55,620 bases of DNA from a virus, in the IMG/VR virus record IMGVR_UViG_3300009512_002372, positions 1 through 55,620 of that record; one strand, 5' to 3'. The first letter of the stretch is position 1. Each line of letters begins with the position of its first letter. The notes under the pieces are model-generated. The model saw only the letters and a program-made list of their open reading frames with translations, did not search any database and was not told the DNA's origin. Below are positions 24,679 through 55,620 of the stretch, one piece after another. Made by a program: the position numbers and the translations under genes.

Positions 24679-26082
24679 CTACTGCCCCATGCGCTTTTTC
24701 AGCGCGTTTAGAAAATCGTTTTGAGTGGCTCCGCGCTCTTTAAGCACGGCCATAGCCGTCTCATCAATAGTGCCGCTAGCTATAATGTGGTGGATAACTG
24801 CGTTTGTGCCGCTGAACTTAGTGCCTACCTGCCGCGCGCCAGTGACGCGGCCGTTGAACTGGTCGTATAACTCTCGTGACCAAGGAGGGCCGAGCCATAC
24901 CACCGTGCATGTCGCATGCTGCAAGTTGTCTACCCCATGCCCCGCACTCTGGGGCTGCGCAGCGAGAACAGGAATCTCTCCAGCTATCCACCTTCTGAGC
25001 TGCTGCTGCGAACCGTTGAAGAACTCCATCGTAGTCTCAGGAAACCGAGCCTCTAATCTCGCGCGGTCTGAGATGAAATGGTATGCAAGTAGAAATGGAC
25101 TGCCTTGTTTCTCGCCGATAAACTCTGCAAGTGCGTCCAGTTTAAAAGTGTGAAGCTCGTTCCAAGTCTTTGTTTTGTTTTCATCTTCGGCGGAGTACAC
25201 AGCACCGTTTGCTACTTGTGACAGCTTGCCAGTAAGAACCCCGGCGTTGACCGCAGTTATTATTTCATCGCCCAACTCCAAGACAGAGTGCCTTTCCATC
25301 TCCAGATATTGGGCGGCGGCCTTCTCTCCAAGGGGGACTTCTATTACGTTGTATAGGGTGTCGGGGAAATCCAAGTGATCGACCGCGCGCATCGTCAGGC
25401 ATTGATGTCTGATGGCGTCCTCAATCGCTTCACTCGCGCCCGGCAGGGGTTCAAATTTGTAACCCATGTAATCGCTTTTGAAGAAGGTGAATTTGTAAGC
25501 ACTGTTTGTTCGCCCCAGCGCCTCGCCAAAATCCAGCAAGAACATTTGTGACCACAGTCCCAGCAAGCCTTGGGCCGCGGGAGAGCCTGTCAACTCTATA
25601 AGCCTGTCAATTTTAGGTAGGACTTTGCGTAGTTTTTTAAAGCGGGCTGTGGATGCCGACTTGTACTTGCTCGACTCATCGAGTATCACGCCGTCCCACG
25701 GCCACTCCGATATTCCGACTTCATTGATAAGCCAAACCAACAGGTCGATGTTTATTATCGTCACATCCGCGCGGCCCTGCGCCAGTGCCTTTAACCTTTG
25801 ACCCGCAGGGAGGCCATCCAAAAACTGAACACTTAAATCTTTTAACTCATCCCACTTTTGAAACTCACTGCGCCAAGTCGTCTGGCATACCCGAAGCGGA
25901 GCTACGATCAACCAGTGGTTAATTTCCTGCGAGAGCAGCGTAGTTCTTATTACTGACGTCGCACAGACAGACTTGCCCATGCCGACGTCCAGAAATAATC
26001 CTGCGCGCGGGACGTCCAGCAGAAACTGGATTGCGGGTATCTGATAGCTGCGAGGTTCAAACTTCACGGGCGTCATCTTCAT
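24679..26082 (-). CDS. SNF2/SWI2-type DNA helicase (DEAD-box-like ATPase)
   Basis: This protein is about 467 residues. Motif I is FLDVGMGKS (GMGKS at about 34-38), Ia is IVAPLRVCQ, II is VILDESS (DES-S in place of DEAH/DEGH), III is ELTGSPAAQGL, and motifs V/VI are AAQPQSAGHGVDN and YDQFNGRVTGARQVG. These identify a superfamily-2 SNF2-like translocase, widespread in phage replication modules with VRR-NUC. The start is uncertain: ATG 26082, ATG 26076 and TTG 26115 are all possible, and none has a strong ribosome site, as expected for coupled translation with the overlapping HTH gene. Likely job: remodelling or unwinding forks and recombination intermediates. Confidence 0.9.
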   Translation of the reverse strand: MKMTPVKFEPRSYQIPAIQFLLDVPRAGLFLDVGMGKSVCATSVIRTTLLSQEINHWLIVAPLRVCQTTWRSEFQKWDELKDLSVQFLDGLPAGQRLKALAQGRADVTIINIDLLVWLINEVGISEWPWDGVILDESSKYKSASTARFKKLRKVLPKIDRLIELTGSPAAQGLLGLWSQMFLLDFGEALGRTNSAYKFTFFKSDYMGYKFEPLPGASEAIEDAIRHQCLTMRAVDHLDFPDTLYNVIEVPLGEKAAAQYLEMERHSVLELGDEIITAVNAGVLTGKLSQVANGAVYSAEDENKTKTWNELHTFKLDALAEFIGEKQGSPFLLAYHFISDRARLEARFPETTMEFFNGSQQQLRRWIAGEIPVLAAQPQSAGHGVDNLQHATCTVVWLGPPWSRELYDQFNGRVTGARQVGTKFSGTNAVIHHIIASGTIDETAMAVLKERGATQNDFLNALKKRMGQ

Positions 26083-26332
26083 CCGGGGTTTTGGTTGGGG
26101 GCCACAGCGAGTCAAGTCTCTTCATAAGCTCCGGCCCCAGTGTCTGTACTTCATGCAGCCACATGCGGCCGTTGCCTGCTCGGGGTGGCCTTTCCCTCGC
26201 TAATTCACGCGGGCGTATAATTCGATTCACGGTAGTGGGGGATATTCCTAGTCGGGCCGCTATCTGACGATGGGAAATCCCGGTCTCCTTCAGTCGCATC
26301 GCCGCATCGTGCATCTCATCTGCTAAAGACAT
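26057..26332 (-). CDS. small helix-turn-helix protein
   Basis: This 91-residue protein carries a clear homeodomain-like HTH at about 10-42 (MRLKETGISHRQIAARLGIS, then TTVNRIIRP), followed by a basic Arg/Pro linker and an acidic tail. The start at ATG 26332 has GGAG upstream. It overlaps VRR-NUC upstream and the helicase downstream. It could be a DNA-binding accessory of the replication module or an operon regulator. Confidence 0.7.
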   Translation of the reverse strand: MSLADEMHDAAMRLKETGISHRQIAARLGISPTTVNRIIRPRELARERPPRAGNGRMWLHEVQTLGPELMKRLDSLWPPTKTPDEDDAREV

Positions 26333-32024: not shown

Positions 32025-32047
32025 GGGAGGTGTGCGGCAGTTGTTTT
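32024..32047 (+). repeat. right copy of 24-bp direct repeat flanking a small gene
   Basis: Exact copy of 31588-31611. It overlaps the stop codon of the repressor (complement of 32046-32048). Confidence 0.85.
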
Positions 32048-32876
32048 AGTGGGTATCCCGGACGAGTTCCCAGCCCGCGACACGTTTAGCAATATCAGCA
32101 ATATCGAACCGGTCTACAAAGTCCCACAGGGGGTGTGCGTAGGCCATAGCCTCGGCCGTAGCCTTGGCGACCGTGTCGCTATGTCCGTTCCTTTGCAGTT
32201 CTATAAGCTCAGGTGCGGCTGCCGCTTTTAAAAGTGCGATCCCCTCCCGAGTCAAAAACATCCGCGCTGGGACTATAAAAAAACGCGGCTCGTTGCTGAA
32301 CGACGACCAGAAGGCATAGACTGATACCTGAGTTACTGAACTATTCACCTGATGACGCCTTCCGACTCGGATGGTGTCGCCCACACTTGGCGACCGGACA
32401 TGAAGCTCAATGTCGTACCGAACGTCGTCGCGTTCAACCGAGAAAGAGTTGTGTCGGTCTTCATCCTGCACGTTGGGATAATAGCCTTCGTAAGACAGCT
32501 CCAGTATCAGCGCGTCGTAGGCAGTTTTTGTGGCTAAGGTAACCGCTTGCTGGTGGCGGGTAATCGCAGCGTTCAGCGCCTCTTGCGACTCGTAGAGATT
32601 TTTAATCATCGAGGGCGGGGAGGCTTGCCGGTCGAGTTGGGTTGCGTAATGAAGTTCCTCAACCCCTGATATTAACTCCTCGACTGAGATGCCCAGCGCC
32701 TTCGATAACGACGGCATGTGCGACGGGCGGGGAAGAGAGCTTCCCGTGAACCAGCGTTGAACAGACTGCGGGGTCACCCCGACTATTTTTGCAACCTTCG
32801 TTTGGGACAAGTCCTGAGACTTTGCCGCTGCGGCTACCCTGACCGCGAAAGTTTGGTACTTCTTTTCTGTTGCCAT
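32046..32876 (-). CDS. CI-like lysogeny repressor with XRE HTH, no visible S24 protease
   Basis: This 276-residue protein has an N-terminal XRE/lambda-type HTH at about 18-70 (QDLSQTKVAKIVGVTPQSVQ, then RWFTGSSLPRPSHMPSLSKA). The ATG has TAAGGAG upstream. The C-terminal domain lacks the Ser/Lys pattern and cleavage site of LexA/CI S24 proteases. Instead there is a mixed alpha/beta region (ALILELSYEGYYPNVQ; DDVRYDIELHVRSP; EPRFFIVPARMFL). It is divergent from the Cro-like gene across a region with matched promoters and operators, so it is the best repressor candidate. Induction probably differs from RecA-stimulated self-cleavage. Confidence 0.8.
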   Translation of the reverse strand: MATEKKYQTFAVRVAAAAKSQDLSQTKVAKIVGVTPQSVQRWFTGSSLPRPSHMPSLSKALGISVEELISGVEELHYATQLDRQASPPSMIKNLYESQEALNAAITRHQQAVTLATKTAYDALILELSYEGYYPNVQDEDRHNSFSVERDDVRYDIELHVRSPSVGDTIRVGRRHQVNSSVTQVSVYAFWSSFSNEPRFFIVPARMFLTREGIALLKAAAAPELIELQRNGHSDTVAKATAEAMAYAHPLWDFVDRFDIADIAKRVAGWELVRDTH

Positions 32877-32983
32877 TACTTTATATGCTCCTTAATCGCA
32901 CTTCAGTGTGGTGTCTCCGTACCAGCGTCAAGAGAGTGCGTGAAAGGCCGGGCGTCGTGCCTCGGAGTGTCATTCGACGTCAC

Positions 32984-33012
32984 ATTGTAATCTTACGCTT
33001 AGACTATTACAA
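32984..33012 (-). promoter_or_regulatory. repressor promoter (PRM-like) overlapping TTGTAAT operators
   Basis: On the minus strand -35 TTGTAA (33007-33012) and -10 TACAAT (32984-32989) are separated by 17 bp and point at the repressor. Both boxes are part of an inverted TTGTAAT/ATTACAA pair (32985-32991 and 33006-33012), which suggests autoregulation. The leader to the start codon is about 100 nt. Confidence 0.65.
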
Positions 33013-33019
33013 CCGAAGA

Positions 33020-33082
33020 TTGTAATGCTCAGTAAAAAGTTGTACACATTACAAGTTTGGTTTACTATTCGTTACACTTACA
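33020..33082 (+). promoter_or_regulatory. rightward early promoter (PR-like) with operators
   Basis: -35 TTGTAC (33040-33045), a 17-bp spacer and -10 TACTAT (33063-33068) point at the Cro-like gene. TTGTAAT lies at 33020-33026, ATTACAA within the spacer at 33048-33054, and TTACACTTACA at 33072-33082 near the start point. The last is identical to the two operators at the leftward promoter. Confidence 0.75.
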
Positions 33083-33119
33083 CGAGTAAGCTACACTTTA
33101 CCTACGGAACACGTCTACT

Positions 33120-33392
33120 ATGCCTGATACCAAATCCTTTCGATCCCATGCTATGACACCTAAGCAGCTCCGAGAATCGGCCGCAGCGTTCAGAACCGCA
33201 ATGCAAAATGTACTTGACGGTAACCTGTCTGAGTTAGCCAGACGCTGCCGGGTCACACCGCAGGCGGTTCAGAGCTGGACAGCAAGCGGCGCAATACCCG
33301 CTCGTAGAGTTGTACAGGTGTGCAACGCGCTCAACAATCACGTTTCTGATTACCAACTGAGGCCCGACATCTTCCGCGATCCCGCCAAGTAG
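33120..33392 (+). CDS. Cro-like / YdaS-type regulator
   Basis: This 90-residue protein has an HTH with NLSELARRCRVTPQAVQSWT, typical of Cro/YdaS-type antirepressors, followed by IPARRVVQVCNALNNHVSDYQL, a frequent ending in that family. It is divergent from the repressor and is the first gene of the rightward operon, so it should favour the lytic state. ATG 33120 is used; ATG 33153 is possible but has no ribosome site either. Confidence 0.8.
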   Translation: MPDTKSFRSHAMTPKQLRESAAAFRTAMQNVLDGNLSELARRCRVTPQAVQSWTASGAIPARRVVQVCNALNNHVSDYQLRPDIFRDPAK

Positions 33393-33488: not shown

Positions 33489-36041
33489 ATGATTGAAGTG
33501 ACCTACGGTCTGAGCGCAGCCCGCAGCAAAAACCTATCACATAAAATTCTTAGCGACATAAATCAGTTTGCAGATTTTATACGCGACGGCTCTACCCACG
33601 TCTCGAAGCTGGACGCCGAGGTCGATACCTTCGCAGCATGGCATTCGCTCACGAAAAAACAGCGGGACAAGCTCAAAGTAAAAGGCGGCTATATAATAGC
33701 TGGTCAGACGGCCGAGGGCGCTAAGAGAAACACGGAGTCTGTCACTGCTGTTAAGCTCTTAATACTAGACCTTGACAGCGGCGACCTGTCACAGCACGAA
33801 GTCACCCTGAAGGTTAGGGACTGGACGTGTGCATACTTTGAGACTGCAAATAGTGTGGGTGGCGCGCGCCGATGGCGGGTAGCACTCCCGCTCAACATAG
33901 CTCTGAGCGTTGGCGATTTTAAACAGGCGTCGGCCAACTTTTTAAAACTGAACGGTATAAGTGCCGACAGTTGTTCTAGCAGCCCGGCTCAAGCTCAGAT
34001 GTTACCCATTATATTTGATGACTACTGTCCCACTGTGCATGTCAACGAGGGGAGCTACTTAGACCTTACTGCGTACTTGACAGTAGCTCCGGGCCAGATC
34101 AACGCCGCGCCTATCGAGGGTGACGAGGGCTTAAAAAACTATCGGAGGCCACTTGAAAGCGTAACGACTGCCGACATAGTAAAAGGGCTTGAGAGCGTAG
34201 ACGCCCACGAGCGGGATGTGTGGATTCAAACCGGGATGGGGCTACATCACCAGTTCGGAGGCTCGGACGAGGGTCTACAGGTGTGGGACGCTTGGAGTTC
34301 AAAGGCCACCGCAAAGTGGGATGACGCCTGTTGTGCGGCCGCATGGGAAGGCTTTAACACGCAGCTCTCAGACCGCGCGCCTGTGACCATCCGCACCGTC
34401 TTGAAAGACCTCGGCCGTCAGGAAGCAGCGGAGTCGCGCGAGAGTTTGCGAGGTGCTTGGGCGCGCAAGATTTCGATGTGCGCTGACGAGGGTGAGATTC
34501 GTGAGGTGTTTACAGTTGAGATTTGTCACGAGTGGACATTCGGAGAATACGACCGCAACCTTCTGGCGCAGTCTATTCAGGTGCGTCTTGCAGAGCTGGC
34601 GGTAACCAGTACCGGCAGGACTGTGAAGCCCCATCCGATTTCTGAAGTGCGCGAGTGGCTTAACCCTAAGAGGCTGTCAGCTAATACTCCTCCCAACAAG
34701 GGTGAGAGACTGGACGAGTTAGATCGCTGGCCCGAGGGCTGGGTCTACTTGCAAAACGGCGATGAGTTTTTAGAACTCGCAACAAAGAGACGTTGCAGCA
34801 GCCGAGGTTTCCAAGCGGAATTTAACCGCCGCATGACTGGGGCTGATGGTGTCTTGATGGCCCCTGCTGACATCTACGCGCTGTCCCTCTGTGAAACTCC
34901 AATTCCAATTTGCGCCCAGCGTATCTATGCGCCGGGTAAGCCTGTGGTTTTTACGGACGAAGACACGGGTGTGAAGTATGCCAACGAGTGGAACGAGCAT
35001 ACAGTCCCGGTCGCGTGGCCGCGCGAGGTTTGGGGAGCAGGGGACAACTCAGCGGTGGTGAATTTTCTTAAACTTCTCACGCTGATAATTCCAAAAACTG
35101 AGAGAAAAACTTTCTTTTATTATATGTGCTGGATCGTGCAGAACGAAGGTTCGCACATGAACTGGGCACCCGTCATTCAGGGGCCACAAGGCGCAGGCAA
35201 GACTATGTTATCGGAAATCTTGAGGGCTGCGCTCGGCGCTGAAAATGCACGGTCGATTGACGCACACGTTCTGGGGTCGGGCTTCACATCGTGGGCGCAA
35301 GGTTCAGTGTTAAATACAATCGAAGAAATAAGATTGCCGGGTGAAAAAGGCAGCGCGCATGCAATCATTAACAGCCTGAAACCCTACATCACCAACGCCC
35401 GCATCAGCATTCACCGCAAAGGCCGTGACCCGTATGAAGTTCCCAACTCAGCCAACTACTTATTCCTGACTAATCACGAGGACGCTATCCCTTTGGAAGC
35501 TGGAGACCGCAGATACTTCGTGGTGTTTACGACGCCGAGGACGGGTATGGACGTGGCGATAATAGTGAAGCAAAGACCTCAGTTTTTCGAGAGGGTCTAC
35601 GACGCCTACACGAATCACCCAGAGGCGCTTAGGGGATACATGCTCGGCGTTAAAATTCCAGATAGCTTTCAACCGTTCGGACACGCACCTCACACCCAAG
35701 CCAAAGACATAATGGGCGGGAACACCAAGCCCGGAGACGAGCAGGCACTGACGGAGGTGCTGTCTGAGGTATATGACGGCGTGAACGGGCCGAGTGGGGT
35801 TCTACACACCGCTGCTGTCACTCAGAGGATGCGTTCAGAATTTTCTGTGACGGTGCGCCCGGCAAGACTTGGGATGCTACTGCGAGCCGCTGGCTGGGAA
35901 AAGTTCGGGAAGCTCAGGTGGCGTGGTACTCCACGGACTATCTACATCAAGCCTCGGCTGTCCGGGCTACAAAATTTACCGGGAGAAGCGGAGCAGATAC
36001 TAGCACTACTTGATGCCAGTGTTGGGGGTGAGTTCTTATGA
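33489..36041 (+). CDS. primase-helicase (AEP-like primase fused to D5/VapE-type SF3 helicase)
   Basis: This 850-residue protein has three parts. The N-terminal archaeo-eukaryotic-primase-like domain shows LLILDLDSGD (Asp94, Asp96) and SSPAQAQMLPI. A PriCT-like linker follows near 215-300 (VTTADIVKGLESVDAHERD, then VWIQTGMGLHH). The C-terminal helicase has Walker A GPQGAGKT (565-572), and later NYLFLTNHEDAIPLEAGDRRYF, typical of DUF5906/VapE ATPases. The start has GGGGAAGAAGATCA upstream. It would prime and unwind at the phage origin and supply what the leftward replication operon lacks. It is coupled to the downstream kinase by an ATGAG overlap. Confidence 0.9.
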   Translation: MIEVTYGLSAARSKNLSHKILSDINQFADFIRDGSTHVSKLDAEVDTFAAWHSLTKKQRDKLKVKGGYIIAGQTAEGAKRNTESVTAVKLLILDLDSGDLSQHEVTLKVRDWTCAYFETANSVGGARRWRVALPLNIALSVGDFKQASANFLKLNGISADSCSSSPAQAQMLPIIFDDYCPTVHVNEGSYLDLTAYLTVAPGQINAAPIEGDEGLKNYRRPLESVTTADIVKGLESVDAHERDVWIQTGMGLHHQFGGSDEGLQVWDAWSSKATAKWDDACCAAAWEGFNTQLSDRAPVTIRTVLKDLGRQEAAESRESLRGAWARKISMCADEGEIREVFTVEICHEWTFGEYDRNLLAQSIQVRLAELAVTSTGRTVKPHPISEVREWLNPKRLSANTPPNKGERLDELDRWPEGWVYLQNGDEFLELATKRRCSSRGFQAEFNRRMTGADGVLMAPADIYALSLCETPIPICAQRIYAPGKPVVFTDEDTGVKYANEWNEHTVPVAWPREVWGAGDNSAVVNFLKLLTLIIPKTERKTFFYYMCWIVQNEGSHMNWAPVIQGPQGAGKTMLSEILRAALGAENARSIDAHVLGSGFTSWAQGSVLNTIEEIRLPGEKGSAHAIINSLKPYITNARISIHRKGRDPYEVPNSANYLFLTNHEDAIPLEAGDRRYFVVFTTPRTGMDVAIIVKQRPQFFERVYDAYTNHPEALRGYMLGVKIPDSFQPFGHAPHTQAKDIMGGNTKPGDEQALTEVLSEVYDGVNGPSGVLHTAAVTQRMRSEFSVTVRPARLGMLLRAAGWEKFGKLRWRGTPRTIYIKPRLSGLQNLPGEAEQILALLDASVGGEFL

Positions 36042-36559: not shown

Positions 36560-36957
36560 AAAAGTTTCTCAAGAAAATAGTTATCAGGGACGATTACATG
36601 ACTCGGTGGCATCTGATCCCTAGAAACAAACACTGCAACATCTACCTGCATAAATTCCACGGCTCCGACGACGCGATCCTACACGATCATCCGTGGTGGA
36701 GTGTCAGTTTCCTTTTGCGCGGGACGCTGTGGGAGGAGCTGCGGTCGATCAGCGGTCGGTGTGTTGATCGCCGAATCCCTTGGCTTTGGCCTGTGTTCAG
36801 AAAAGCAAAGCTACTGCACCGGCTTGACGTTTATAACAGCCCAGTCTGGACTCTGTTTATTACTGGCCCCGTCGTTAGGCGATGGGGTTTCTCGACGCCA
36901 GCGGGTTGGGTTGATGCCGGGTGTTACCGCGGCCGCGGCAGGACTATAGACCAATGA
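36556..36957 (+). CDS. cupin-like metal-binding protein
   Basis: This 133-residue protein has NIYLHKFHGSDDAILHDHPW and then WSVSFLLRGTLWEEL, the His-rich first cupin motif and glycine turn, and later VWTLFITGPVVRRWGF as the second strand pair. Related small proteins occur in many phages next to nucleotide or primase genes, with unknown substrate. It overlaps both neighbours. Confidence 0.75.
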   Translation: MKKFLKKIVIRDDYMTRWHLIPRNKHCNIYLHKFHGSDDAILHDHPWWSVSFLLRGTLWEELRSISGRCVDRRIPWLWPVFRKAKLLHRLDVYNSPVWTLFITGPVVRRWGFSTPAGWVDAGCYRGRGRTIDQ

Positions 36958-37460
36958 GGGCTATCGAACGTATCGCACTGTTGGCCGTGAGAGGCAGCTC
37001 GGCGTTTTCAGACGGCGGCGGGGCAACGACTGGGCGAAAGCGCGGGTGGCAGGACGTGGCCGCGGCGTTGGCTGCTCCCCGGTCTAAGTCTCCGACAGAC
37101 CAGCGGCCGCCAGCGTCTGAGCTGGGCAGGCTCATCGTGTTGCAGGACATCAGCTCGGTTGAGTTACGGCGGCTGCTGCAATGGGTGGGCGGGACTGAGC
37201 GAGAAGCAGCCGCGGCCGTTAGCGCCGTGATTGGCGCAACGCCATGCACTGGGTGCGGTGGATCGGGGGAGGGTGCAGCAGGGACTTACTGCCCGCGGTG
37301 CGACGGGGCCGGGGTCAAGAACTTGGGTGAGCGTCCTATCGCTGAGTTGTTAGGGGTAAGCAGACACCGCTTCAGAAAAGACCGGGCGGCGCATGACGCG
37401 AGGGTTGCAAGGGTACATGACCTGATTGAAATTTTAGAGAGGAGGCTGCGCGGAAGTTAA
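36954..37460 (+). CDS. Q-like antitermination protein
   Basis: ATG 36954 overlaps the previous stop and gives 168 residues. A zinc-finger-like segment Cys98-x2-Cys101-x11-Cys113-x2-Cys116, with CTGCGGSG and CPRCDGAG, is followed by PIAELLGVSRHRFRKDR and a helical end. This matches the phage antitermination Q family (DnaJ-like Cys knuckles plus HTH-like region). It is the last gene of the rightward early operon, as Q usually is, and a hairpin terminator follows at once. It should let RNA polymerase read late genes. Confidence 0.8.
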   Translation: MRAIERIALLAVRGSSAFSDGGGATTGRKRGWQDVAAALAAPRSKSPTDQRPPASELGRLIVLQDISSVELRRLLQWVGGTEREAAAAVSAVIGATPCTGCGGSGEGAAGTYCPRCDGAGVKNLGERPIAELLGVSRHRFRKDRAAHDARVARVHDLIEILERRLRGS

Positions 37461-38311: not shown

Positions 38312-38326
38312 GAGTGGGGCGGGCGG

Positions 38327-38548
38327 TTAGTAGCTGTCAAGCTCTTCTATGGCAGCGTCTATAAGTTCTGGCGTTAGGGTTGCCCCTGCTGCTAGCTGAG
38401 ATTTTAATTCAGCCGAGAACTCTTTAAGAATACGCACCGTTTCCTTGCGGGAAGTTTCGCGGATTCGCTCTCGCAAATTCTCTCGCTGATCTCTGATAGA
38501 GCTTTCTACTCTACTCAACCGCGCGCCTATTTCGTTTGGGTTACTCAT
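38327..38548 (-). CDS. small helical protein, unknown
   Basis: This 73-residue protein is taken from ATG 38548, which overlaps the end of the zinc-ribbon gene and has GAGGGGAAGATAACG before it. It is charged and helical (RVESSIRDQRENLRERIRET; RILKEFSAELKSQLAAG), likely a coiled coil. It is the last gene before the terminator at 38285-38311. Confidence 0.6.
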   Translation of the reverse strand: MSNPNEIGARLSRVESSIRDQRENLRERIRETSRKETVRILKEFSAELKSQLAAGATLTPELIDAAIEELDSY

Positions 38549-38885
38549 CGTTATCTTCCCCTCGCTGGCTAGTGTGCAGGACTTCTTCGCTTCCGCAATC
38601 GCCGCAGTGCGGGGTGAGCTGCTCCTCGTTGTACTTCGCGCCACAATCCTCGCACTGGTACACCATGTCCTCTTCCCGGTACTCAGTCCACGCGACTGTT
38701 TGCAAGGAGTGCGCAGACCACATAATGGTAGCGGTAGTGCGTCCAGTGCCCCGGTCTACCAGCCTCACCAAGATACCGTCCTCGCTGTCCGCGGTGTGAA
38801 CCTCGTGCGTCGCCTCCGATTTCGGATCGTCGTACCAAGACCTGCGGCCCAGCTCGTGTGTTTTAGTTCGCGTTTCGTTTATCAT
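38541..38885 (-). CDS. zinc-ribbon protein
   Basis: This 114-residue protein has CEDCGAKYNEEQL, then PHCGDCGSEEV, i.e. two CxxC knuckles 11 residues apart, in the C-terminal part. The N-terminal part looks like a small beta-domain (DGILVRLVDRGTGRTTATIM). ATG 38885 follows AAAGGGAGCAGCAA and overlaps the upstream stop. It may bind nucleic acid or protein. The exact family is unknown to me. Confidence 0.7.
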   Translation of the reverse strand: MINETRTKTHELGRRSWYDDPKSEATHEVHTADSEDGILVRLVDRGTGRTTATIMWSAHSLQTVAWTEYREEDMVYQCEDCGAKYNEEQLTPHCGDCGSEEVLHTSQRGEDNDE

Positions 38886-43636: not shown

Positions 43637-43682
43637 GTTTGTCTCTCCAGTTATCAGTTATCGAAGCCCGGTGGCCTCTACT

Positions 43683-43730: not shown

Positions 43731-44213
43731 CTAGGGGTTCTTTAGATTCTCCGACCATTCGCGCCACAACTTCGTTCGCAGCCCTTCCATGCCTTTCTCC
43801 AGCTCGATGACCTGCTCCTTGAGCGCCCATGCCGCCTCTTCGTATTCGGCGCGGCGCTCTCCGCTGCGGACAACTTGGCGCTCTAGCTGTGCGATGCGCG
43901 CGTCCTTCGTTCCGTATTCTCTTGCCTGCGCGGCTTTGATTTCCTCGACGCAGCGAGCGGGAAGCGGGGACAGCGGAGCAGCGAAGTCGCCGGGGAGGGT
44001 GAAGCTGTCAGGCTCGGGGAAACGCAGTGCGGCTGACTGGGCGTCGCGCACACGAACCCACTCGGCGGCGCGGGCTGCTAGTCTGCGATGTGATATGCGC
44101 TCGGTCAGGTTGATGACCAGCAGCAGCAGTAGGGTGACGATAGGTGCATAGAAGATGATCGCGGCAAAGGGGTTGATGTGCCGGTCAGATATGGCGAAGG
44201 CTAATAGGTCCAT
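43731..44213 (-). CDS. single-pass membrane protein with coiled coil (Rz-spanin-like or accessory)
   Basis: ATG 44213 gives 160 residues; the open frame further upstream crosses a regulatory region and is not used. After a short N-terminus there is one transmembrane helix (AAIIFYAPIVTLLLLLVINL, about 18-37), a basic stretch, and a long charged helix at the C-terminus (RIAQLERQVVRSGERRAEYE, then EAAWALKEQVIELEKGM), likely coiled coil. This topology fits an inner-membrane spanin, but no outer-membrane lipoprotein partner is seen and the gene is on the strand opposite to the lysis genes, so membrane anchoring of the neighbouring AAA/VWA system is an alternative. Confidence 0.6.
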   Translation of the reverse strand: MDLLAFAISDRHINPFAAIIFYAPIVTLLLLLVINLTERISHRRLAARAAEWVRVRDAQSAALRFPEPDSFTLPGDFAAPLSPLPARCVEEIKAAQAREYGTKDARIAQLERQVVRSGERRAEYEEAAWALKEQVIELEKGMEGLRTKLWREWSENLKNP

Positions 44214-44334
44214 GTGGTGTCTCTCTCTGGTTGTCGCCCGCGTGATTGCAGGTCGAAACAACACTCTACACCCGATGAGTGTAGGGTACAAGTGTTGCTT
44301 GTAATTAGAGTGTAAATAGATGGAGCAAGGGGGC

Positions 44335-44635
44335 GTTCTTGATTTTGAAATCGAGAACGGATCAGGAACAAATCAAGAACGGATGGCGGCAAAAGCGTTC
44401 TTGATAGCGTTCTTGATTTGAAAATCAAGAACGGTGCAGATGTCCCGGTATGACTGGGCTGGGAGGTGGTGTGTTCTTGATGTTCTTGATGTTCTTGATT
44501 TTCCTAGATAGTCAGTAAAGAGATAAAGTAATTAGGTTTATTCTCAAATCCCTATTTTTACAAGCTACGATTGTAGGTTTTGATATGTGTATATAGAACG
44601 AACTAACTTAGCGCCATATTGAGAACATCGAGAAC
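44335..44635. repeat. 9-bp iteron cluster (GTTCTTGAT / ATCAAGAAC)
   Basis: Exact GTTCTTGAT at 44335, 44397, 44409, and three head-to-tail copies at 44473, 44482 and 44491. Exact inverse ATCAAGAAC at 44372 and 44424. Near copies (1-2 changes) at 44350, 44361, 44618 and 44627. The pair at 44409-44417 and 44424-44432 forms a palindrome with 11-bp arms. Such clusters bind replication initiators, ParB-like proteins, repressors or terminase. The AT-rich block beside it favours an origin. Confidence 0.85.
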
Positions 44636-44959
44636 ATACAAGCTAACCTTGTACCCGTGACGCCTCACCACTAAGGCGTAATAATATTAGCCCCTCCCCC
44701 CATCGCGCATCGCAATTCAGCAGGCCACCCCGGTCGCCGGTCACCCAGTCGCCGCGGTGATCTACTGCTGGTGACCAGCTCGGGTGTATGCCTACCTCCC
44801 ATGCCACACAGGCAGACACATCCTCCCTCCCCGCTGCGCCGAATTGGAATCGAAGCCGTAAGGCAATGAGGCGCTGTGGTGAACCCCCCTTTTTGCCTCC
44901 GTGCCGGGGGAATACGGGCCAACAGGGGGGCCGGGTACGGGGCGACAGGGGCAATTCAG

Positions 44960-44976
44960 CGGCCCCGCAGGGGCCG
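44960..44976. terminator. GC hairpin near the late-gene leader
   Basis: CGGCCCC-GCA-GGGGCCG is a perfect 7-bp stem followed by TTGTTA, a weak T-run in the rightward direction. It could stop stray rightward transcripts before the terminase genes or be an antitermination target. Confidence 0.4.
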
Positions 44977-45152
44977 TTGTTAGCCCTATTATAGATTTCT
45001 GGTGAAACTGGATTATTGACTTACAAGTTTAGCTTTAACTTTTCCAAATAACGTGTAGATTCCGTGTAAATTCCACCGATAGGAATAAAAACAACTTTAC
45101 GCTTGTACGCCGCAACCAATAAGTGTAATCTCTTCGCTAGTCTGGAGCTTTA

Positions 45153-45800
45153 ATGGCGACCACAAACATGGCCCCCTCGATGACAGCACCCACAACAGCC
45201 TCTCAAACCAGCCGCGTACCCGTCACCCTCGACGATTTACGCAGTATGGAAGACGCAATGTTTCAAAACCCTACTGCTAGGTTCTCAACGACCCAGCGAG
45301 TGTTTTTTGAGGCGCTACTATCGCACCCAACCTTAGATGTCGCAGCCGCCGCCAAGATTTGCGACGTGCCGATTAAGAAAGCGATGTCGTGGATAGCACA
45401 ACCGACGGTTCAAGCCGCTCTGAATCACCTTATGACCACCCGCATGAAGCGGCTGGGACTAGATAAGGACTCATTGCTGGCTAAAATCGTAGACTTACTT
45501 GATATGTCCACTGGCGTAGTCCCTATTATCAAATCGGGGTACGACAAAGACACTAAAACATTCACGTCGCAGTCAGTAAAAGAGACTGACTTAGGCGCAG
45601 CGGCCCGATTTACTGACCAGCTATCTAAGCATTTCCAACTTTATGCTCCTGAAGGTGTGTCTGGACTTAGCGTTAACCTCAGTTTGGTTATGGGGGAAGA
45701 CCCACAGCTCATTCCGCAGTCTAGCGAAGACGAGGTAGTGTCACTTGACGCGCTGCCTACGATTGAACTTGACCCTGACACGGAAGAGGACGCCGATTGA
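45153..45800 (+). CDS. terminase small subunit
   Basis: This 215-residue protein precedes the large subunit. It has a disordered Thr/Pro-rich N-terminus, an HTH-like segment (LDVAAAAKICDVPIKKAMSW) and a helical core, and an acidic C-terminus (LDPDTEEDAD). Small terminases bind the packaging site and pass DNA to the motor. ATG 45153 has TCTGGAGCTTTA upstream. It overlaps the TTG start of the large subunit by three bases. Identification rests mostly on size, HTH and position. Confidence 0.8.
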   Translation: MATTNMAPSMTAPTTASQTSRVPVTLDDLRSMEDAMFQNPTARFSTTQRVFFEALLSHPTLDVAAAAKICDVPIKKAMSWIAQPTVQAALNHLMTTRMKRLGLDKDSLLAKIVDLLDMSTGVVPIIKSGYDKDTKTFTSQSVKETDLGAAARFTDQLSKHFQLYAPEGVSGLSVNLSLVMGEDPQLIPQSSEDEVVSLDALPTIELDPDTEEDAD

Positions 45801-47320
45801 GCGTTCAGCCGCCCGTCAACATTGATTACAAGGCATCACCGACCTTTAAGAGCTTCCATTCGGATCGCACTTCGTTCGTTCGCGGAATGCGCGGCCCTAT
45901 TGGTTCTGGGAAGTCCGTCGGTGCGATGATCGACGTGGCTTTGGAGAAAGCACTACAGCAAGCTCCGAACGCATCGGGTATTCGCAAGTCCCGATGGGGT
46001 TTAGTCCGAGCAACTTACCCCGAGTTAAAGAGTACAACGCTCAAGACGTTTCAAGATTGGCTGCCGGACTCGATATGCCCAGTCAAAATCAACGAATCTC
46101 CTATTACTGCGCGGTTAACGCTGCCACTGCCCGACAAAACCGTGGTCATGGCAGAGTTTGTGTTCATCGCGCTGGACAAACCGAAAGACTTAGGCAAGTT
46201 ATTGAGCTTAGAGTTGACCGGCGCGTTCTTAAACGAAGCAAAAGAGCTGGATAAGGCGGTTGCCGACACGATTACGTCTCGGGTAGGTCGGTATCCAGCG
46301 GTACGAGAAGGCGGCCCGAGCTGGTCTGGCGTCCTGATGGACACGAACAGCCCCGCGGAAGATCACTGGTACGCGGAGTTGGAGCAAAACCCGCCGGATG
46401 GCTGGACGTTTTACCAACAACCGCCCGCGCTACTGCGGTATAAGACGGGGTCACCCCTGCTGATGAACCCGGACACCACCGGGATTACTAAAGCAAGGTG
46501 CGAGAGTACCGGCTTCGAGCCAAACCCCGCCGCCGAGAACATACAGAACCTCCCCGGAGGGTATGAATACTACTATAACGCCATAGGCGGTAAAGACCCG
46601 AACTGGGTACGCGCCTATGTGCTGAACGAATACGCGACCGTGCGCGACGGCAGGCCGGTGTACGGCGAAACCTTCAATGAGAGGGTTCACGTCGCCAAGA
46701 CAAACCTTTGGCCGCTCAAAAAACACCCTATCTATATAGGATTGGACTTTGGACTGACTCCCAGCGCCATTTTTGGGCAGTATGTTGACGGCCAACTTCG
46801 TATTCTTGACGAGTTAGTGGCAACCCGCATGGGTCTGACTGACTTTATTACTACGGTGATGATGCCGCTGATTGCGCAGAAGTACGCGCAGCATGACCGC
46901 ATCTATGTCGGCGACCCTTCGGGCAACGCGGCGGGTGACACCGACGAAGTAAGCTGTTTTCAGGTAATGCGGGGCGCAGGCATGGCGGTTGTCCCGGCAT
47001 CTACTAACGCTATCGAGCCTCGTCTTGAGGCGGTACGTCACTTTCTCATGCGACTGGCCCCAAAGGGGGAACCGGCGTTCTTGCTGAGTGCGCACTGCAC
47101 CATTTTGAAATCCGGCTTCATTGCAGGCTATCAGTACGCCCGCGTTCAGGTTTCAGGCGAGGCTCGATACCGAGAGAAGCCAGACAAAAACAAATTTAGC
47201 CACCCCCATGACGCATTGCAGTATTTATGCTTGAGGGTTTTAACCGCGATAGCGCGGGAGAAAAACAGCGGGCATACGTTTGCCCCTTTGAAGGTTGCTG
47301 ACATGCGCACAGGTTACTAA
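45797..47320 (+). CDS. terminase large subunit
   Basis: This 507-residue protein starts at TTG overlapping the previous TGA. The ATPase has MRGPIGSGKSV (Walker A, Lys39) and LELTGAFLNEAKEL (Walker B with Glu147). The nuclease has IGLDFGLTPSAIFGQ near residue 316 (first Asp), YVGDPSGNAAGD near 373, and a final KFSHPHDALQYL. This is the order of phage packaging motors that translocate DNA into the prohead and cut it. It is coupled to the portal by an overlapping TAATGG. Confidence 0.95.
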   Translation: MSVQPPVNIDYKASPTFKSFHSDRTSFVRGMRGPIGSGKSVGAMIDVALEKALQQAPNASGIRKSRWGLVRATYPELKSTTLKTFQDWLPDSICPVKINESPITARLTLPLPDKTVVMAEFVFIALDKPKDLGKLLSLELTGAFLNEAKELDKAVADTITSRVGRYPAVREGGPSWSGVLMDTNSPAEDHWYAELEQNPPDGWTFYQQPPALLRYKTGSPLLMNPDTTGITKARCESTGFEPNPAAENIQNLPGGYEYYYNAIGGKDPNWVRAYVLNEYATVRDGRPVYGETFNERVHVAKTNLWPLKKHPIYIGLDFGLTPSAIFGQYVDGQLRILDELVATRMGLTDFITTVMMPLIAQKYAQHDRIYVGDPSGNAAGDTDEVSCFQVMRGAGMAVVPASTNAIEPRLEAVRHFLMRLAPKGEPAFLLSAHCTILKSGFIAGYQYARVQVSGEARYREKPDKNKFSHPHDALQYLCLRVLTAIAREKNSGHTFAPLKVADMRTGY

Positions 47321-54710: not shown

Positions 54711-55620
54711 TGGCGAATAACTATTACGAACACGACAATCCTTTTGTCGCAGGAACCCTAGTCGCCTCTGCGGCGGTTAACTCTCAGCTCGATCTTATCG
54801 AGACGGGTTTTGAGGCGGCGGAAGCAACGCTTGCCAAAACCGTGCAAGTGCCTAGCGACTTCACAGGAACTACCCAAATTTCTTCCCAAACATTTCCTAA
54901 CAAGCTGATATATATAAACACCGCAGGCAATGTTGATCTGTACAGCCTAGCCGCTTTTGATGCCTCAGTAACAGCGTCAGCCGACAGAGCGACTGCGTCA
55001 GCCGACAGCGCGACTGCGTCAGCCGACAGCGCCGCTGCGGCAGCCAACAGCGCGACTGCGGCAGCCACGCAAGTAGGACTGGCAACAGACCAAGTAGGAC
55101 TTGCCACCACGCAAGTAGGACTTGCCACCACGCAGGCAGGACTAGCGGCGGGCAGCGCATCGGACGCCGCAAACAGCGCCACGGCTGCGGCAGCCGCATT
55201 GCCGACTGGAACAACCACCAACTCAATGCTGCGTTACAACGGATCATCTTGGGTAGAGACAGATAAGCTCCAAGTAGATGCCGCTGGAGTCGTTACTGCG
55301 ACCGCTGGCCTACAAAGCACAGGCGCAGGCACTGACAGCTTTAGAGCTGGCAAACTAGCAGGCGACACCAATCAAGGCAATAACGGCATCATCATCAGCT
55401 CCACCGGAGCTATACTAGATGACACTACTGCTGGTCACATCCACATAGCGAGCAGCACTGGCTCAATTGACTACACTACCGCTGCTGGCTGGACTGCTAC
55501 TGATAGCTCTAGCACGTTTTCTCTTAAACTTGCAGCAAATTTACCCCTCGTATCTTATACCGGACCCGGAGTTCCAACTACTGTCGGCATACAAATTGGA
55601 TCGACAGCGGGTACTGTGGC
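54710..55620 (+). CDS. tail fibre, N-terminal part (3' end outside window)
   Basis: From ATG 54710 (TAATG overlap) the frame is open to the window end: 303 complete codons. The N-terminus (NNYYEHDNPFVAGTLVASAA, then VNSQLDLIETGFEAAE) is the kind that attaches fibres to podovirus tails. A hinge of short repeats follows at about residues 85-165: units such as TASADSA, then TQVGLAT, from near-identical DNA repeats (54966-55145). A beta-rich region (RAGKLAGDTNQGNNGIIISS) then leads into the 217-bp segment repeated at the left end of the window. The gene continues there, so the fibre would be about 620 residues if the copies are one segment. Confidence 0.85.
   Translation, partial: MANNYYEHDNPFVAGTLVASAAVNSQLDLIETGFEAAEATLAKTVQVPSDFTGTTQISSQTFPNKLIYINTAGNVDLYSLAAFDASVTASADRATASADSATASADSAAAAANSATAAATQVGLATDQVGLATTQVGLATTQAGLAAGSASDAANSATAAAAALPTGTTTNSMLRYNGSSWVETDKLQVDAAGVVTATAGLQSTGAGTDSFRAGKLAGDTNQGNNGIIISSTGAILDDTTAGHIHIASSTGSIDYTTAAGWTATDSSSTFSLKLAANLPLVSYTGPGVPTTVGIQIGSTAGTV
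54966..55145. repeat. short tandem repeats encoding the fibre hinge
   Basis: Repeated units such as GCGTCAGCCGACAG and CAAGTAGGACTTGCCACC encode Ala/Ser/Thr/Asp-rich heptad-like repeats. Recombination among them may vary the fibre length between isolates. Confidence 0.75.
55404..55620. repeat. right copy of imperfect 217-bp terminal direct repeat
   Basis: This matches 1-217 with about 16 substitutions and no gaps, same codon phase. The divergent positions are partly nonsynonymous (Phe to Tyr, Leu/Gly to Ala, Val/Gly to Ser), so they could be a population variant or a second module. Confidence 0.9.

What the first reader, a model, noticed from the sequence alone, without database searches (positions are those of the whole stretch)
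44335..44635. Cluster of about twelve 9-bp iterons next to AT-rich DNA
GTTCTTGAT and ATCAAGAAC repeats (eight exact, four near) include three exact tandem units (44473-44499) and a palindrome with 11-bp arms. AT-rich DNA follows. It is the strongest unexplained non-coding structure in the window. It could be the replication origin used by the D5-type primase-helicase, a partition-like site, an operator array or the terminase binding site.
Basis: partly seen in the sequence, partly recalled or inferred. Interest (0 to 1): 0.7.

Follow-up and report, generated by a model that had tools for sequence, protein, structure and literature searches.

The report
Likely phage replication origin iteron array
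A temperate virus of bacteria carries, in its longest non-coding stretch, twelve copies of a 9-letter DNA word beside its most easily opened DNA and framed by binding sites of its own dormancy switch, most likely the place where its DNA copying starts, although a packaging signal or promoter switch is not excluded.

Summary
Eight exact and three one-mismatch copies of GTTCTTGAT/ATCAAGAAC, plus one two-mismatch copy, lie at 44335-44635. No 9-mer reached more than 3 copies per 300 bp in shuffles. The array sits in the longest non-coding gap (44214-45152, 939 bp), between a leftward gene set and the rightward late operon (TerS, TerL, portal). Immediately beside it is the most AT-rich, least stable 80- and 120-bp DNA of the genome (44491-44610).

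Not reported before: three exact TACAA-N7-TTGTA palindromes (44287, 44559, 44637) frame the array. The only other exact copy in the window is in the repressor/Cro promoter (33008). So the lysogeny switch probably controls this region directly, and the array is not its operator.

Best reading (about 0.45): an iteron-type replication origin for the phage's own initiator, probably the P4/NrS-1-like primase-helicase. Rivals are a TerS-bound packaging signal and a divergent-promoter regulatory array. A 97% relative keeps the units it covers. A relative with 38% identical TerL has the same layout with another 9-mer (TGTAACCGR) upstream of TerS. That second word also precedes TerS genes in several unrelated phages, so the packaging rival stays open. 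The binder is not identified. Kind: new member of a known kind.

The parts
44335..44635 (.). array of twelve 9-bp units GTTCTTGAT/ATCAAGAAC, both orientations (8 exact, 3 with one mismatch, 1 with two)
44473..44499 (+). three exact tandem units
   Evidence: the part covered by relative L006 (from 44478) is identical there
44334..44359 (.). 26-bp inverted repeat, first copy (imperfect: ATCGAGAAC right arm)
   Evidence: pair I1
44408..44433 (.). 26-bp inverted repeat CGTTCTTGATTT-GA-AAATCAAGAACG, 12-bp perfect arms
   Evidence: pair I11
44618..44635 (-). distal tandem pair ATTGAGAAC-ATCGAGAAC; relative L006 has ATCGAGAAC twice
44516..44595 (.). most AT-rich (26% GC) and least stable 80 bp of the genome; candidate unwinding element
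44287..44303 (.). exact operator-like palindrome TACAAG-TGTTG-CTTGTA, left of the array
44559..44575 (.). operator-like palindrome TACAAGCTACGATTGTA inside the AT-rich stretch
   Evidence: both arms unchanged in L006, two substitutions in the spacer
44637..44653 (.). exact operator-like palindrome TACAAG-CTAAC-CTTGTA right of the array
   Evidence: unchanged in L006
33008..33024 (.). the only other exact TACAA-N7-TTGTA in the window, in the repressor/Cro gap
   Evidence: 59 of 60 shuffles of the window have none
32046..32876 (-). CI-like repressor (HTH_3)
33120..33392 (+). Cro/YdaS-like regulator
33489..36041 (+). primase-helicase (PriCT_2, DUF5906/VapE-like), candidate initiator; NrS-1 primase is the solved relative
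26057..26332 (-). small helix-turn-helix protein in the replication operon, alternative binder
   Evidence: BcepC6B has an HTH gene (gp27) at the same place next to its helicase
43731..44213 (-). first gene of the leftward set (160 aa, no family match); start ATG 44213 preferred
   Evidence: start choice is inference
45153..45800 (+). terminase small subunit by position and by homology to the gene before TerL in L007; no Pfam, PHROG or NCBIfam match
45797..47320 (+). terminase large subunit
44948..44987 (+). strong GC hairpin in the late leader, possible terminator or antitermination target
   Evidence: fold of 44941-45000, -29.3 kcal/mol

Best explanation
The array is most likely the phage's iteron-type replication origin. 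A phage initiator, probably the P4/NrS-1-like primase-helicase (33489-36041) through its C-terminal part, or else the small HTH protein of the replication operon (26057-26332), would bind the 9-bp units in both orientations and melt the adjacent AT-rich stretch (44491-44610). The lysogeny repressor (and/or Cro) would bind the three TACAA-N7-TTGTA operators that frame the array, shutting the divergent promoters and, as at the lambda origin, any transcription through it in a lysogen. Shown: the array, the weak duplex, the framing by operators shared with the repressor/Cro gap, the divergent position, and conservation of the covered part in one relative. Inferred: which protein binds, that replication starts here, and that the repressor silences it.
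For: Eight exact 9-mers against a shuffle maximum of 3. The adjoining 80 and 120 bp are the least stable DNA of the genome. [quoted passage not shown] In L006, over the shared stretch, array units changed at 1 of 40 positions (staying within GTTCTYGAT) and operator arms at 0 of 20, against 20 of 299 elsewhere. The motif is confined to this one place, as expected for an origin rather than a regulon. Literature precedents: SPP1 oriL/oriR are direct repeats plus an AT-rich unwinding element (PMC6316719); Ceduovirus origins lie between the divergent early and late modules and exist in unrelated sequence types (PMC7150918). L016 has the same layout, with 11 TGTAACCGR units around an (AT)n block in a divergent gap. 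Positive control for the cluster search: it found the repeats inside the O gene of the lambda-like phage vB_Pun_Y3.
Against: The array is 8 kb from the primase gene. BcepC6B, with a similar gene order and its own primase, has no comparable 9-mer cluster. No binder was identified, and the structure model of the primase C-terminus failed (pLDDT 44). GC skew gives no origin signal. No DnaA box lies near. The L006 conservation is based on few substitutions. G1, the 50-kb relative, lacks this region because its contig stops 202 bp before TerS. Position upstream of TerS fits a packaging signal too.
Confidence: 0.45

Rival explanations
1. Packaging initiation site: the terminase small subunit (45153-45800) binds the 9-bp units as in a cosB or pac region and recruits the large subunit to cut nearby.
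For: The array ends 517 bp upstream of the TerS start. In L016, whose TerL is 38% identical, a 9-mer array lies upstream of TerS. Arrays of the same word as in L016, GTGTAACC(G), lie just 5' of Terminase_2-type TerS genes in unrelated contigs L218, L245, L261, L277 and L279. In SPP1 the pac region overlaps the promoters and start of the TerS gene and holds direct repeats (PMC6316719, PMC4737164). The TerS stretch 61-80, which I read as a helix-turn-helix, is 12/20 identical to G1 while its neighbours are 17-18/20 and 15-16/20, and G1's 50 kb hold no GTTCTTGAT.
Against: Known pac signals lie in or touching terS, and pac-type TerS proteins bind DNA weakly with little sequence specificity (PMC9611059, PMC4737164). 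Twelve well-kept units over 300 bp, half a kilobase away, are unusual for that. Most other TerL relatives have no such array. The genome's weakest duplex next to the array is not required for packaging.
Confidence: 0.25
2. Regulatory array of the divergent promoters: a phage transcription factor binds the units to activate or repress the leftward gene set and the late operon.
For: The array lies between two operator-framed gene starts. Two 26-bp palindromes with 6-bp unit spacing look like dimer sites. The phage has several HTH proteins. A zinc-finger protein at 36921-37460, which I read as possibly Q-like, fits a late regulator.
Against: The motif occurs at no other promoter, and twelve sites are many for one regulator. 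No family search supports the Q-like reading. Promoter matches here are at the shuffle level.
Confidence: 0.22
3. Partition (centromere-like) site of a plasmid-like prophage.
For: Short repeats in both orientations near a promoter resemble some centromeres (own knowledge).
Against: No ParA/ParB match above cut-off in the ORFs scanned. A tyrosine integrase is present.
Confidence: 0.04

Closest known systems
Satellite phage P4 ori/crr with the alpha primase-helicase (own knowledge)
   Same: 9-bp units in both orientations, AT-rich DNA, own primase-helicase; TIGR01613 'P4 family' matches the primase weakly, below its cut-off
   Different: different unit sequence; no second cluster near the primase gene; binding unproven
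SPP1 oriL/oriR (PMC6316719)
   Same: direct repeats plus an AT-rich unwinding element
   Different: SPP1 uses gp38 with a DnaB-type helicase and has two origins; here one array and a primase-helicase
Ceduovirus c2-type origin (PMC7150918)
   Same: origin in the gap between divergent early and late modules; sequence varies between types
   Different: the c2 origin works by a promoter transcript and supports a plasmid without phage proteins; I saw no such 9-mer array described in the passages read
Lambda cosB / SPP1 pac
   Same: repeated TerS-linked elements near terS
   Different: known ones abut or overlap terS; here 517 bp upstream, 12 units, mixed orientation
Efquatrovirus (EfaCPT1) intergenic array
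   Same: GTTCTTCAT/GTTCTTGAT units in both orientations in the early/late divergent gap
   Different: no homologous replication or terminase gene seen in the comparison; TerS is five genes away; the shared 9-mer may be coincidence

Membership tests
iteron-type replication origin | cluster of short repeats beyond chance | tested here: met
   8 exact against a shuffle maximum of 3
iteron-type replication origin | adjacent easily melted AT-rich element | tested here: met
   least stable 80 and 120 bp of the genome
iteron-type replication origin | cognate initiator binds the repeats | not testable with these tools
   primase-helicase present; its C-terminal model was poor
iteron-type replication origin | drives autonomous replication or shows a replication peak | not testable with these tools
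   no reads available; GC skew uninformative
TerS-bound packaging site (pac/cosB) | in or abutting the terS gene | tested here: not met
   array ends 517 bp before the TerS start
TerS-bound packaging site (pac/cosB) | virion DNA ends map nearby | not testable with these tools
   the record is a circular map; L005 reads across the join
CI/Cro operator array | same element present in the repressor/Cro gap | tested here: not met
   no GTTCTTGAT match within one mismatch at 32877-33119; the flanking TACAA-N7-TTGTA does meet it
partition site (parS-like) | ParA/ParB genes in the same replicon | tested here: not met
   none above cut-off in the ORFs scanned; not every small ORF was scanned
divergent-promoter enhancer | activator binds and promoter activity depends on the array | not testable with these tools
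   consensus promoter scan at chance level

The most novel reading that the evidence does not exclude
Two-orientation 9-bp arrays at the head of the packaging operon are a recurring, sequence-divergent class in unrelated phages (here GTTCTTGAT; TGTAACCGR in L016 and other contigs), each read by its own terminase small subunit as a long-range packaging signal, and here placed under direct control of the lysogeny repressor.
Probability: 0.15. Interest if true: 0.65.

Novelty: new member of a known kind. Interest (0 to 1): 0.42.

Why it matters
If it is the origin, it gives a clear target for testing how P4/NrS-1-like primase-helicases recognise DNA in temperate podoviruses of the BcepC6B type, and an origin framed by lysogeny operators, which would tie replication directly to the lysis-lysogeny decision. 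If it is read by TerS, it would be an unusually clear sequence-specific packaging signal, which pac-type phages have been reluctant to show.

Tried and rejected
Viral-collection scans for the 24-bp palindrome gave only two chance matches inside genes. Tandem GTTCTYGAT hits were mostly isolated single matches, apart from Efquatrovirus arrays and L006; the Efquatrovirus similarity is treated as probable coincidence because no related replication or terminase gene was seen. TerS, primase, ATPase and leftward-gene scans added no contig that covers the whole array. GC skew, promoter/terminator scan, Rfam and DnaA boxes were uninformative. The AlphaFold model of the primase C-terminus was unusable. 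IHF sites: the units share the WATCAA half, but my reading by eye finds no spaced TTR half. A Q-like reading of 36921-37460 from its CxxCxGxG finger is mine alone; Pfam, PHROG, NCBIfam and PDB searches did not support it. Paper searches for the 9-mer gave primers and unrelated matches.

Full report
Setting. The window is one IMG/VR record of 55,620 bp. Positions 1-20 recur at 55404, and contig L005 (99.8% identical) runs through the join, so the map is circular with a unit of about 55.4 kb. Gene content shows a temperate, podovirus-like phage: TerS 45153 (by position and by homology to L007's gene), TerL 45797, portal 47320, tyrosine integrase 21303, CI-like repressor 32046-32876, Cro/YdaS-like 33120, primase-helicase 33489, PolA-type polymerase 26850, gp2.5-type SSB 29027, exonuclease 29628, helicase 24679. 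Gene order matches BcepC6B, except that a leftward block (37.5-44.2 kb, its 40-44 kb part 62-65% GC) with MoxR-type ATPase and VWA genes lies between the primase operon and TerS.

Observation. The array is real and at the stated place: eight exact units, three with one mismatch and one with two, in both orientations. No shuffle of the window gave more than three copies of any 9-mer in 300 bp. It lies in the longest non-coding gap, 44214-45152. The next 80-120 bp are the least stable duplex of the genome.

New element. TACAA-N7-TTGTA occurs exactly four times in the window: 33008, in the repressor/Cro gap, and 44287, 44559, 44637 around the array. In 60 shuffles the count was 0 in 59 and 1 in one. 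The simplest inference is that these are operators of the repressor and/or Cro, so this region is switched with lysogeny. GTTCTTGAT is absent from the repressor/Cro gap, so it is a different protein's site.

Relatives. L006 (97% identical over most of its length) begins inside the tandem units and keeps what it covers: one change in 40 unit positions, none in 20 operator-arm positions, 20 in 299 others. That is consistent with constraint but statistically weak. The 50-kb relative G1 (contig of L007; TerL 89%, primase 61%, TerS 66%) stops 202 bp before TerS on one side and inside the VWA gene on the other, so its array region is unknown; it has no GTTCTTGAT elsewhere. BcepC6B has no such cluster. 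L016 (TerL 38%) has eleven TGTAACCGR units and five ATGTTAACC units around an (AT)n block in a divergent gap before TerS. Its word also forms arrays just 5' of Terminase_2-type TerS genes in L218, L245, L261, L277 and L279, and between a gene I read as a primase and a packaging gene (GP3_package) in L268. Efquatrovirus phages have GTTCTTCAT/GTTCTTGAT arrays in their early/late gap.

Mechanism. Repeats plus weak duplex in a divergent early/late gap match known phage origins: SPP1 repeats plus unwinding element and Ceduovirus position. The phage brings its own primase-helicase, whose closest solved relative by sequence is the NrS-1 primase (that 6k9c/6k9e are NrS-1 entries is my own knowledge, the table says only 'Primase'). 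I therefore favour an origin at about 0.45. A TerS-read packaging site (0.25) is favoured by position and by the TerS-linked arrays elsewhere, and disfavoured by distance from terS, the weak specificity reported for pac-type TerS and the scarcity of such arrays among TerL relatives. A regulatory array (0.22) is possible; the lack of any second site in the genome argues against a regulon. The options are not exclusive.

Limits. No reads, no binding data, no second complete relative. The two-orientation arrays before TerS in unrelated phages deserve their own study.

Noticed in passing
L016:3063-3356; L245:6924-7012; L218:5447-5680; L277:1581-1737; L261:3963-4055; L279:2262-2351; L268:5005-5251: Arrays of GTGTAACC(G)/CGGTTACAC upstream of terminase small subunit genes (Terminase_2, or GP3_package in L268) in apparently unrelated phages.
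   Followed up: partly
L034:10855-11129, L124:11796-12083, L133, L096 (Efquatrovirus group; EfaCPT1 38322-38590): Two-orientation arrays of GTTCTTCAT/GTTCTCGAT/GTTCTCTGT/GTTCTTGAT in the early/late divergent gap; the unit sequence varies between phages.
   Followed up: partly
window:39962-43636: MoxR-type ATPase and VWA/DUF2201 metallopeptidase-like pair in a GC-rich (62-65%) leftward block; relatives of the ATPase occur in N4-like phages and in Rhizobium phage RHph_TM27A.
   Followed up: no
window:36921-37460: Protein with a CxxCxGxG zinc finger and a C-terminal LGVSRHRFRKD stretch that I read as possibly Q-like; family searches did not confirm it.
   Followed up: partly
window:44906-44987: G-quadruplex-like G runs followed by a strong GC hairpin in the late leader, just before TerS.
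   Followed up: no
window:1-217 and 55404-55620: The record's ends overlap by about 217 bp with differences; the first 20 bases are identical to 55404-55423, and L005 crosses the join.
   Followed up: yes
window:43676-45062: Several near-identical contigs break in or near this gap (L023/L163 end at 43675, L006 starts at 44478, L004 at 45063); L006 has an insertion of about 43 bp near 44850.
   Followed up: partly
L026:19389-19580 (Pasteurella phage Pmp11): Five to six copies of AAACTGCGAA inside the TerS gene of a phage whose TerL is 47% identical; pac-like.
   Followed up: no
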